In this document: positions 39,840-43,040 of the stretch, in pieces
Layout: each line of letters begins with the position of its first letter
Numbering within the stretch: the stretch's first letter is position 1
Source of the DNA: Pararhizobium qamdonense
GTDB taxonomy: Bacteria > Pseudomonadota > Alphaproteobacteria > Rhizobiales > Rhizobiaceae
NCBI RefSeq assembly: GCF_029277445.1
Contig: NZ_CP119570.1
Span: forward strand, 1-64,000
Direction of reading: 5' to 3'
DNA length: 64,000 nt
Program-made: the position numbers and the translations under genes
The notes under the pieces: generated by a model
Seen by the model: the letters and a program-made list of their open reading frames with translations, nothing else
The model's database searches: none
What the model was told of the DNA's origin: nothing

Positions 39840-40538
39840 ATGAGCAAGAAGCAGTCCAATGCCACGCCGGCCGCAACGACGTCCAAGCCCGAGCAGGCCG
39901 CCTACATATTCGCCGATGCCGTCAAGGCGCATCCGGACGACCAGGCGCAGGCCTTTGCACTCGCCATCGGTGCCGCCTTCGACGAGCGCGTCGCCTTTGA
40001 GATCAGCCGGACAGCAAGCGGCTCTGCAGACATGCCCAAGGTGAAGAAGCTCAACAACTATCGCGCCAAGCTCGCCCTGCCCTCCCTGGCGAAGGTGATG
40101 ATGGAACTCGGCAAGACACCGGCGTTCATCAACGCGACCCAAGGCAAGGACACAGGCGGCGACCGGTTCAACATCTACGCGATCGACAAGGCGGTCGATA
40201 TCGTCCGGGCGCTCTCCGGTGTGCAAAAGCTGGATAACAAGCACAACATCGCCATTGCCAAGTCGATGCAGATCTTCGAAGATGCAGGCGCGACATTCAC
40301 CGCCGAAATGGCCTTGTGCGCCGCATCCGACAAAATCCGCAGCCAGGATCCAAACGCCAAGCTCTTGCGTAGGCACACCGTCGCTAAGGCGACTGCCGGC
40401 ACGCAGGCATCATCGACGCTCAACGCGCTCATGGCCCTTGGACTGATCATCAACACCGGCACCAAGCGGGCCGGCACGTATGTCTTCGCCAAGACCAACC
40501 AGGCGCAGGCATTCAAAGAGCTTCTGACAGCGGTCTGA
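39840..40538 (+). CDS. Hypothetical protein, paralogue of the GG/CC-free gene
   Basis: A 232-residue protein with a polar Ala/Thr N-terminus and a helical body. From about residue 75 it can be aligned by eye with the 41982-42545 product: for example LLRRHTVAKATAGTQASS / NALMALGLIINTGTKRAGTYVF against YFRRKDVFSSAKRHASM / RALVALNILKSASKDKYTV. The C-terminal domain has a winged-helix-like pattern. Normal codon use and glycine content. It sits alone between a direct repeat and a terminator. DNA binding is an inference. Confidence 0.75.
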   Translation: MSKKQSNATPAATTSKPEQAAYIFADAVKAHPDDQAQAFALAIGAAFDERVAFEISRTASGSADMPKVKKLNNYRAKLALPSLAKVMMELGKTPAFINATQGKDTGGDRFNIYAIDKAVDIVRALSGVQKLDNKHNIAIAKSMQIFEDAGATFTAEMALCAASDKIRSQDPNAKLLRRHTVAKATAGTQASSTLNALMALGLIINTGTKRAGTYVFAKTNQAQAFKELLTAV

Positions 40539-40596: not shown

Positions 40597-40814
40597 TTGG
40601 TTGGATCTCAGCCATGGAGAACCAAGGCGCCCAGAGGCGTAAATTGGGGAACCGGTGGGGTCCAAGGGACCGGGCGGCCGTGAAACCACGAGATCCCGCC
40701 CCATAGACTGCCATTCCCATAGCGCCATGGCTGATCCATGGTCCCTCCTCCGGCAGGCCATGGCAGGTCCACGCGTCGCCAGGCCGGTGCTCATGCCAGT
40801 CAACTCCTATTGAT

Positions 40815-41499: not shown

Positions 41500-41693
41500 T
41501 GTGCGCTTTGTCAAACCATGGGGAACCAAGGCTAATAAATTTAGGAACCGAGGCGTCCCGTGCCATGGGCTGCCATCCTCCGGCGAGTCCCTCAGTGCGT
41601 CGCCTACGCGTGCCAAGCGCCTCCAAGCGACTGCTGTCCTAGTCGATGCTTATATAAGCAGATACGCAAGAGCGCGCTTTATCAGCGCGCTCT

Positions 41694-41717
41694 CATTTAG
41701 CGAATTAGCGATTTCTA
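41694..41717. repeat. TCGCTAAA-type repeat cluster
   Basis: TTTAGCGAATTAGCGATTTC: two direct units in reverse orientation at the 3' end of the 41715 gene. Confidence 0.5.
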
Positions 41718-41906
41718 TTCGTGGTAGCGCGTCTCATGACGCATATTCAGCATTTCGTATATGTCGCTTTGCTGATAATCGAAACGACGATCTAACAGCT
41801 CGATATTAGCGCTTTCTGAAACGCGCTTTTCTTCACGTCGCTTTTGACGTTGTAACAGTTCGCGCTGTGTGAGCGATACGCGCGCTTTTGAGAATGACTT
41901 GCTCAT
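41715..41906 (-). CDS. Small protein lacking Gly, Pro and Trp
   Basis: A 63-residue, highly charged helical protein (RELLQRQKRREEKRVSESAN) in the GG/CC-free island. The lack of glycine, proline and tryptophan follows directly from the DNA, since their codons are GGN, CCN and TGG. GAAAGAG precedes its ATG. A palindromic operator lies upstream at 41961. Confidence 0.65.
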   Translation of the reverse strand: MSKSFSKARVSLTQRELLQRQKRREEKRVSESANIELLDRRFDYQQSDIYEMLNMRHETRYHE

Positions 41907-41960
41907 GTGTGCTCTTTCGACTGTGTGACGCTGCTAGAGCGCTTTGACACGCTCTAGCTA

Positions 41961-41978
41961 AGTCAAGATTGATTGACT
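41961..41978 (-). promoter_or_regulatory. Palindromic operator on the reverse strand
   Basis: AGTCAAGATTGATTGACT lies between the two island genes, 55 bases before the start of the 41715-41906 gene; it is the only clear copy serving a reverse gene alone. Confidence 0.5.
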
Positions 41979-41981
41979 GTA

Positions 41982-42545
41982 TTACGCAGTAAAGCGCGCT
42001 TCAATCGCTTTAACAATGTCGTTGTCATTAACAGTGTATTTGTCTTTCGACGCGCTCTTGAGAATATTGAGCGCGACAAGCGCACGCATATTCATGCTTG
42101 CGTGACGCTTTGCAGACGAAAAGACGTCTTTGCGACGAAAATACAAGTGCGCACGCTCTTTTGCGACTTTGATATTCTTATCAAGCGCGATTTCAATATC
42201 GCTTGCGCTGAATTGTTCATTTGCTTTCTTGAAGTTGATCAGTGTGCGCAACGTCTCTTCAACGTTGCTCTTGAGCTTATCAACGTTGCGTGCGTCAACA
42301 GCGAACTCGAGCATGTGAGCGCAGTTCTCAAGCGCTTTCATGCAGAACGCGCTATTCGCTTGCACGCTGTCTTGAGCAAAGTCTGTCTTGACTTCGCAGT
42401 TCGCAAGCAACGTCGCAACTTTTTCTTGAGAAACGACGAGTGCGCATTTCGAAATGAAGTTTAACGAGTTTGCAGACTTCGCATTCTTCAGTTCAACATC
42501 GTAGCGTGCAGAAAGCGAAAGTGCGTATGCGTTAACAGTGTTCAT
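41982..42545 (-). CDS. GG/CC-free paralogue of the 39840 protein
   Basis: A 187-residue helical protein with no glycine, proline or tryptophan. Aligned by eye with the 39840-40538 product, it keeps the helical core and the C-terminal winged-helix-like region (RR..V..A...AS...RALVALNIL...SKDKYTV) while Gly and Pro positions are replaced. The end NDNDIVKAIEARF also resembles NDNSAVAERLREIF of the 18294 product. GAAAGAGAGAC precedes its ATG. The reading frame is intact over 188 codons despite the strange DNA, so the protein is under selection. Confidence 0.75.
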   Translation of the reverse strand: MNTVNAYALSLSARYDVELKNAKSANSLNFISKCALVVSQEKVATLLANCEVKTDFAQDSVQANSAFCMKALENCAHMLEFAVDARNVDKLKSNVEETLRTLINFKKANEQFSASDIEIALDKNIKVAKERAHLYFRRKDVFSSAKRHASMNMRALVALNILKSASKDKYTVNDNDIVKAIEARFTA

Positions 42546-42575
42546 GATAGTGTCTCTCTTTCGTTGTGTTGTTGT

Positions 42576-42611
42576 CTAGTGTCGTTGTTGACATGATCAT
42601 TTAGACACTAG
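42576..42611 (-). promoter_or_regulatory. Inverted repeat upstream of the GG/CC-free gene
   Basis: CTAGTGTC and GACACTAG with 20 bases between, 30 bases upstream of the 42545 start; probable operator. Confidence 0.45.
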
Positions 42612-42627
42612 TTCGAAACGTCCTGCA

Positions 42628-42655
42628 ATAGCTATTTCGCTAAATCGCTAAATAT
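42628..42655. repeat. TCGCTAAA-type repeat cluster
   Basis: ATAGCTATTTCGCTAAATCG then CTAAATAT: three units in tandem, 83 bases upstream of the 41982-42545 gene. The gap 42656-43093 holds no convincing gene. Confidence 0.6.
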
Positions 42656-43021
42656 TTTTCGTTGTCATATGAGCTGTGACTGAAACGCTCATATCGCGCA
42701 TTACAGACGCATAGACGCGCATGACATCAAACGCGCTGTGTCGCAGCGTCTTGCATGAGGGATCGAGCGTGTGACGCGCTGTGAGTCTGTGTGATGAGAG
42801 TTTGTCGTGTGAGATGCGAAGTCTTAGAGATTTGTGCTGAAGTCGAACATGATACCCACTGCTGCCCGGCAAATTTCCGGTATGGACTACCTATCCTCGT
42901 GCCTGACCTGGTCGGACGTGTTGACCTGGGTAGCGAACTGTCAATCAAATCCCCGGCGCCCAGTCTCCCCTGCCCCGCAGCCCAGACCTCAAAATTCCCA
43001 GACTACCCATCCTGATTTTAA

Positions 43022-43040
43022 TCAATCAATATTGACTGAC
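43022..43040 (+). promoter_or_regulatory. Palindromic operator
   Basis: TCAATCAATATTGACTGAC, 53 bases before ATG 43094; preceded by TGATTTTAA as a possible -10. Confidence 0.6.

What the first reader, a model, noticed from the sequence alone, without database searches (positions are those of the whole stretch)
41640..42854. A 1.2-kb island with almost no GG or CC on either strand
Reading base by base, 41724-42621 (898 bases, about 46% G+C) has no GG and no CC; the whole 1,215-base block has three exceptions. About 90 would be expected in the central part alone. Coding and non-coding DNA are both affected, and the two encoded proteins have no Gly, Pro or Trp. Something seems to have removed these dinucleotides at the DNA level, or to select against them. 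Candidates: avoidance of a GG/CC-dependent nuclease or PAM (Cas9 NGG, type I-F CC), a CC-targeting deaminase, a strand-transfer or priming requirement, or protection from an agent encoded by the phage itself. Edges are sharp, so it is a defined unit.
Basis: seen in the sequence. Interest (0 to 1): 0.95.

Follow-up and report, generated by a model that had tools for sequence, protein, structure and literature searches.

The report
Phage operon written without GG/CC
A small operon in a family of Rhizobium phages that carry plasmid-maintenance genes contains almost no GG or CC letter pairs, even in relatives whose proteins share only about a quarter of their residues; it is likely written this way so that its message would survive an agent, probably an RNA-cutting enzyme, that destroys ordinary messages.

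Summary
In detail: 41724-42621 has 0 GG/CC (94 expected) and 41640-42854 has 4 (128 expected). The island is a minus-strand operon (187-aa gene, then 63-aa gene) in a 115,652-base phage-plasmid contig of the RHEph10/pLM21S1 kind. I read this locus in 22 distinct phages or plasmids; all are depleted. Of 21 counted, 19 hold 75 GG/CC against about 2,165 expected. Gene content differs between lineages and the main protein falls to 21-27% identity, yet 61 of 73 homologues have no Gly, Pro or Trp. A paralogue of normal composition lies 1.1 kb away. A bipartite element ending in CTAAGACTTCG marks the 5' edge (exact box in 21 of 22). In two lineages sense-strand CC has returned but GG has not (CC 40 of 114 expected, GG 2 of 69), so the two avoidances are separable and strand-aware. 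That favours selection on the transcript over a PAM or symmetric DNA reader. Best explanation, inferred and untested: a message immune to a GG/CC-specific agent, most likely an endoribonuclease. I identified no such enzyme; DNA-level rivals remain open.

The parts
41640..42854 (-). GG/CC-free operon (whole depleted block)
   Evidence: 4 GG/CC against 128 expected
42851..42856 (-). GGTATC, the window's form of the GGCATC element 29 nt before the box; GGCATC in the other 20 loci that have the exact box
42817..42827 (-). CTAAGACTTCG box at the 5' edge, promoter-like position; role inferred
   Evidence: exact in 21 of 22 distinct loci, one mismatch in L043
41982..42545 (-). 187-aa gene, no Gly/Pro/Trp; predicted protein with a C-terminal helix-turn-helix and beta wing, likely DNA-binding
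41933..41958 (-). inverted repeat between the two genes, built without GG/CC
   Evidence: read from the sequence
41715..41906 (-). 63-aa gene, no Gly/Pro/Trp
41669..41693 (-). terminal hairpin made of alternating G and C (AGAGCGCGCT-loop-AGCGCGCTCT)
   Evidence: read from the sequence; not listed by the terminator scan
42757..42765 (+). GAGGGATCG, an exception in the leader; related loci carry GAGGGA at a similar place on the other strand
   Evidence: GAGGGA or its complement in the leader of 8 of 22 loci
41695..41713 (+). left TTAGCGA double word, inverted relative to the right one
42627..42653 (+). right TTAGCGA double word
39840..40538 (+). 232-aa paralogue of normal composition (internal control)
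   Evidence: 42 GG and 55 CC; homology

Best explanation
This is a small minus-strand operon of a Rhizobium phage-plasmid that carries almost no GG or CC from its 5' box to past its terminal hairpin, most likely because its transcript has to stay intact and translated while an agent that recognises GG (and usually CC), probably a sequence-specific endoribonuclease of the phage or the host, is destroying other messages. Shown: the exclusion, its persistence across lineages, its fit to an operon rather than to particular genes, and the separability of sense GG from sense CC. Inferred: that the target is the transcript, that the agent is an RNase, and that the predicted winged-helix protein is needed while the agent is active. 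Not identified: the agent itself. It would be a natural counterpart of the ACA-less messages that survive MazF.
For: Depletion runs from a 5' element (exact box in 21 of 22 loci; nearest upstream GG/CC 3-27 nt before it) through the genes and past a hairpin. Different genes in the same operon are equally free: a 51-64-aa extra frame in L001, L002, L003 and L009 and an unrelated second gene in pLM21S1. Sense GG is kept out where sense CC has returned: L042 GG 2 / CC 30 (34 / 66 expected), L038 GG 0 / CC 10 (35 / 48 expected) (Fisher p 6e-6 and 0.002). The ribosome-binding regions read GAAAGAGA and GAAAGAGC, without GG. The paralogue in the same genome is normal. RtcB, an RNA ligase, is in 5 of 6 genomes compared (weak, circumstantial). 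Precedents: T4 RegB cuts GGAG/U in messages (PMC3014915 passages); ACA-less messages are translated in MazF-producing cells (PMC5408214 passages).
Against: In 19 of 21 counted loci CC is avoided as strongly as GG, which one GG-specific RNase does not explain. No transcript start or end is mapped. Depletion continues past the hairpin (first sense GG 18-242 nt after the last stop in 13 loci) and the order in which GG and CC return is mixed. No RNase of the RegB kind appeared among the 62 of 168 RHph_Y2_11 features scanned with Pfam (the third list was cut at 25 of 35 families). The other counted genes of the phage are rich in GG, so why only this message is protected must be assumed. A GAGGGA is tolerated in the leader of 8 of 22 loci.
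Confidence: 0.37

Rival explanations
1. A DNA-binding silencer or roadblock (host or phage protein) sits on GG/CC and stops transcription of everything else in one phase of the phage cycle; the operon is the one unit it cannot occupy. Orientation-dependent roadblocks would allow sense CC to be better tolerated than sense GG.
For: GG and CC are avoided equally in 19 of 21 counted loci, as expected for a double-stranded target; the island protein and its paralogue look DNA-binding; repeated TTAGCGA words flank the island.
Against: GG/CC stands 3 nt before the box in 9 of 21 loci, so the region next to the box is not cleared. A two-base target would cover host and phage DNA alike.
Confidence: 0.22
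2. A DNA nuclease, restriction-like system or DNA modification acts at GG/CC, and this operon must be free of sites, for example because it enters the cell first or must be read before modification is tolerated (like restriction sites missing from the first-entering DNA of T5, recalled).
For: B1VFA has fixed ends with 3.6-kb terminal repeats (PMC12509600, whole text), so an entry order is likely; the avoidance is two-stranded in most loci.
Against: Strand asymmetry in L038 and L042. No modification enzyme appeared in the Pfam lists of 62 RHph_Y2_11 proteins, and no methyltransferase gene was distinguished in pLM21S1 (PMC5537653 passages). T5 A1 homologues are in only 3 of 6 genomes and not in the window's contig, and T5 itself is not depleted in the part profiled. 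The position of the terminal repeats relative to the island is unknown to me.
Confidence: 0.17
3. A targeted mutational process, for example a CC-directed deaminase acting during transcription, removes GG/CC as they arise.
For: Near-zero counts in coding and non-coding parts alike; G+C is lower than around it (46% against about 57%).
Against: Relative to background, GC (1.81 against 1.18) and CG (1.77 against 1.26) gain while TC (1.07 against 1.26) and GA (1.24 against 1.22) do not (window); C-to-T change at CC would leave TC/CT and GA/AG. It would need a process confined to one operon.
Confidence: 0.08
4. The island is a zone without primase start sites, needed for initiation or direction of replication.
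For: Recognition of short motifs on one strand is usual for primases (recalled); these phages carry their own helicase, primase and RepC.
Against: repC lies about 50 kb away in RHph_Y2_11. One stray primer start should not be lethal. The edges follow the operon element.
Confidence: 0.04

Closest known systems
MazF single-protein production (ACA-less mRNA in E. coli)
   Same: A message lacking the motif of a sequence-specific RNase is still translated while that RNase acts (PMC5408214 passages).
   Different: That is an engineered message and a three-base motif; here it is natural, two bases, usually both GG and CC, and no RNase is known.
T4 RegB endoribonuclease
   Same: A phage enzyme that cuts messages inside a GG-containing motif early in infection (PMC3014915 passages).
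   Different: RegB needs GGAG/U plus context; here nearly every GG and CC is gone and no RegB homologue was seen in the Pfam lists.
CpG or UpA depletion in animal viruses (ZAP, RNase L; recalled)
   Same: A dinucleotide avoided in viral RNA to escape an RNA-directed agent.
   Different: Those are partial, genome-wide biases; this is near-absolute, confined to one operon, and costs three amino acids.
Missing restriction sites in first-entering DNA of T5 (recalled)
   Same: A defined part of a phage genome lacks recognition sites.
   Different: Sites there are longer and double-stranded; here the motif is two bases and strand-aware in two lineages. T5 itself shows no GG/CC depletion in the part profiled.

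Membership tests
RHEph10/pLM21S1-type Rhizobiaceae phage-plasmids | RepC replication gene, ParA/ParB-like genes and phage structural genes in one 115-122 kb replicon | tested here: met
   RHph_Y2_11 has RepC, ParA, ParB-like, terminase, capsid and tail genes. The window carries the ParA-type frame and its contig is 115,652 bases. repC was not separately searched in the window's own contig.
RHEph10/pLM21S1-type Rhizobiaceae phage-plasmids | DNA similarity to RHEph10 at this locus | tested here: met
   78.5% identity over 82% of the block to RHEph10
winged-helix DNA-binding proteins | C-terminal helix-turn-helix with beta wing | tested here: inconclusive
RegB-type GG-specific endoribonuclease system | RegB homologue in the phage | tested here: inconclusive
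   No RegB family among the Pfam hits listed for 62 of 168 RHph_Y2_11 features (one list cut at 25 of 35 families); the window's own phage proteins were not scanned.
RegB-type GG-specific endoribonuclease system | cleavage of messages at GG motifs | not testable with these tools
   needs RNA end mapping
PAM or restriction-site avoidance | avoidance symmetric on both DNA strands | tested here: not met
   Symmetric in 19 of 21 counted loci, but L042 and L038 keep out sense GG and not CC
T5 A1 host-DNA degradation system | A1 homologue in every phage with an island | tested here: not met
   Found in RHph_Y2_11, G412 and G414; not in the window's contig, B1VFA or G415 (BLASTP E <= 1e-4)

The most novel reading that the evidence does not exclude
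These phages write one operon in a GG/CC-free dialect, giving up glycine, proline and tryptophan, so that it is the message left standing when a dinucleotide-specific RNase clears the cell: a natural single-protein-production system, and the footprint of an undescribed defence or host-shutoff ribonuclease in Rhizobiaceae.
Probability: 0.28. Interest if true: 0.96.

Novelty: categorically new. Interest (0 to 1): 0.91.

Why it matters
I know of no system that removes a two-base word from a whole kilobase of coding and non-coding DNA and keeps it out while the proteins diverge to about a quarter identity. Something appears to punish nearly every GG in this operon and not elsewhere in the phage. 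Finding that agent would reveal either a new RNA- or DNA-level defence or a new takeover mechanism, and could give a tool for expressing one chosen gene while others are shut off. The normal paralogue, the strand-asymmetric lineages and the near-invariant 5' element make the question directly testable.

Tried and rejected
Assembly or sequencing error: rejected, 22 distinct loci from separate deposits. Protein-composition effect: rejected by re-coding (58 expected, 0 seen) and by the non-coding parts. Gene-specific effect: rejected, extra or replaced genes in the operon are also GG/CC-free. Host mutation bias: unlikely, neighbouring genes and the paralogue are normal; one truncated homologue in a large Rhizobium replicon (P0073, 137 aa) carries 15 Gly/Pro/Trp, but I could not read its DNA. 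Whole-genome depletion: rejected. Phage DNA modification: no enzyme in the lists seen. T5 A1 as the general agent: rejected.

Gene loss explaining the return of CC in L042: 31 B1VFA open frames have hits in G414 and G415 but not in G412 (L042's record). Five of them are hit in all the other five genomes; one of these is an annotated gene (B1VFA_111, 76 aa, in the block before the lysozyme-like region, only 32-36% identical in two genomes, so its absence may be a detection limit), and four overlap annotated genes in other frames. Not pursued.

Fold and family searches gave no function: PDB none at E <= 0.001; viral library two, one a close homologue and one uncharacterised; PHROGs only weak hits for the 187-aa protein and none for the 63-aa protein. 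Scans of genome contigs found no relative; the genome search found the island gene in none of 25 other genomes of the genus and 393 others of the family. The profile hit to the paralogue was listed and not. In one search the island gene of RHph_Y2_11 dropped out because the gene filter needed hits in two other genomes. Literature listings (open-access library only) showed nothing about such an island. The order in which sense GG and CC return past the hairpin is mixed. Rfam, padloc and host CRISPR searches were not run.

Full report
WHAT IS THERE. The stretch 41724-42621 has no GG and no CC in 898 bases at 45.8% G+C, with 94 expected. The 1,215-base block 41640-42854 has four such steps at three places. 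The lowest of 20,000 shuffles of the core had 59. Outside the block the longest interval without GG/CC is 74 bases in the window and 76 in the slices of the rest of the contig. The window is the first 64 kb of a 115,652-base contig in a five-contig, 6.24-Mb assembly. It is related to Rhizobium phage RHEph10 and to the plasmid-like prophage pLM21S1, which carries RepC (PMC4447125 and PMC5537653 passages).

ANATOMY. The island is a minus-strand operon among plus-strand genes. In order: an element GGTATC (GGCATC elsewhere), 23 nt later a box CTAAGACTTCG (42817-42827), a leader, the 187-aa gene (41982-42545), an inverted repeat, the 63-aa gene (41715-41906) and a terminal hairpin of alternating G and C (41669-41693). 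Neither protein has Gly, Pro or Trp. The ribosome-binding regions read GAAAGAGA and GAAAGAGC, without GG. Relatives L001, L002, L003 and L009 carry an extra 51-64-aa frame between the two genes inside the depleted stretch. pLM21S1 has an unrelated second gene inside a 1,334-base interval free of GG/CC. So the constraint belongs to the unit, not to particular genes.

CONSERVATION. I read 22 distinct loci: the window, L001-L004, L006-L009, L015, L017, L018, L022, L023, L033, L034 and L038-L043 (L005, L016 and L024-L032 repeat some of them). All are depleted, L042 for GG far more than for CC. Counting from box to last stop in 21 of the 22 (L040 left out), the 19 loci other than L038 and L042 have 35 GG and 40 CC against about 1,060 and 1,105 expected. 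Seven relatives differ from the window at 325-368 aligned positions (identity 69-73%), while 25% of random substitutions in the block would create a GG or CC. The loci are related to one another, so these are not independent trials. Two protein searches gave 73 distinct homologues; 61 have no Gly, Pro or Trp, and 15 of the 35 such residues in total sit in one truncated copy, P0073. B1VFA's protein is 21-27% identical to the twelve other members outside its own close group in the alignment, with an 851-base interval free of GG/CC.

CONTROL IN THE SAME GENOME. The 232-aa gene at 39840-40538, 1.1 kb from the block, is a paralogue: BLASTP E 1e-8 to P0025, hhalign E 1e-4 with probability 56%, profile hit E 1e-5 (not listed). 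It has 42 GG and 55 CC. The hundred relatives listed for it (capped by candidate scoring) average 8.8% Gly+Pro+Trp, range 5.0-12.0, against 0.29% for the island family. The paralogue's ALGLI aligns with ALN in the island protein, and that Asn is invariant in 20 aligned island proteins; I read this as replacement of a turn glycine. Among 99 genes counted in the window's contig and 134 in B1VFA, the island gene has the lowest GG score.

EDGES. The box is exact in 21 of 22 loci, with one mismatch in L043; GGCATC stands 29 nt before it in 20 of those 21 and GGTATC in the window; the nearest upstream GG/CC lies 3-27 nt before the box. The depletion ends beyond the terminal hairpin: in 13 loci listed the first sense GG after the last stop is 18-242 nt away, and whether GG or CC returns first is mixed. 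The edges therefore follow a transcription unit, although no start site has been mapped. One recurrent exception, GAGGGA, lies in the leader of 8 of 22 loci, inverted in the window.

STRAND AWARENESS. In L042 the sense strand has GG 2 and CC 30 (34 and 66 expected); in L038 GG 0 and CC 10 (35 and 48 expected) (Fisher p 6e-6 and 0.002). L038 and B1VFA differ at 61 of 692 positions, so the relaxation looks recent, and it produced CC but no GG. Outside these two, 25 of 40 sense CC exceptions are ACC (15 of 15 in L015 and L017). A symmetric reader of double-stranded DNA does not predict this.

MECHANISM. I favour transcript-level selection: the message has to survive an agent that cuts or blocks RNA containing GG, and in most lineages CC. 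RegB shows that a phage can carry an RNase for a GG-containing motif (PMC3014915 passages), and ACA-less messages show that removing a motif can protect a message (PMC5408214 passages). RtcB, an RNA ligase, is in five of six genomes compared. Against this, CC avoidance needs a second specificity, no RNase was found, the rest of the phage is GG-rich, and a GG is tolerated in some leaders. A DNA-bound roadblock, a DNA nuclease acting on early-entering DNA, a deaminase and a priming-free zone are weaker but open rivals. The deaminase is disfavoured because GC and CG, not TC or GA, are the dinucleotides that gain.

WHAT I COULD NOT DO. No transcript data, no virion chemistry, no metagenome scans (cap zero), no host defence or CRISPR scan. 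In the listings (open-access papers only) I saw no description of such an island.

Noticed in passing
window 40819, 41217, 41697, 42635, 43817, 45073, 46052, 47165, 49185, 52174, 33141 and contig C5 81386, 91063, 104926: Clusters of TTAGCGA-type words (14 clusters with two or more), mostly in the 40-52 kb part; possible operators of a phage regulator.
   Followed up: partly
window 40601-40750, 41519-41640 and 42876-43025: GG/CC-rich intergenic stretches close to the island (150-base windows at 40601 and 42876 are among the three most enriched of the contig); CCATGG-GAACC-GGAACCG motifs recur in two of them.
   Followed up: partly
L022 9395-9600: B1VFA has a very G-run-rich non-coding stretch directly beside its GG/CC-free island.
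   Followed up: no
RHph_Y2_11 (L010-L012): Pfam matches to Lar, Acb2/Tad1 hairpin and Tad2-like domains suggest several anti-defence genes in these phages.
   Followed up: no
L011 2062-3921: A T5 A1 homologue (phrog_1745, E 5e-161) in RHph_Y2_11, also in G412 and G414 but not in the window's contig, B1VFA or G415.
   Followed up: yes
P0073: A 137-aa truncated homologue in an 882-kb Rhizobium replicon has 15 Gly/Pro/Trp, a possible decayed copy freed from the constraint; its DNA was not read.
   Followed up: no
island units of six loci: GTAC is absent (0 against about 15 expected, pooled over both strands of related sequences).
   Followed up: no
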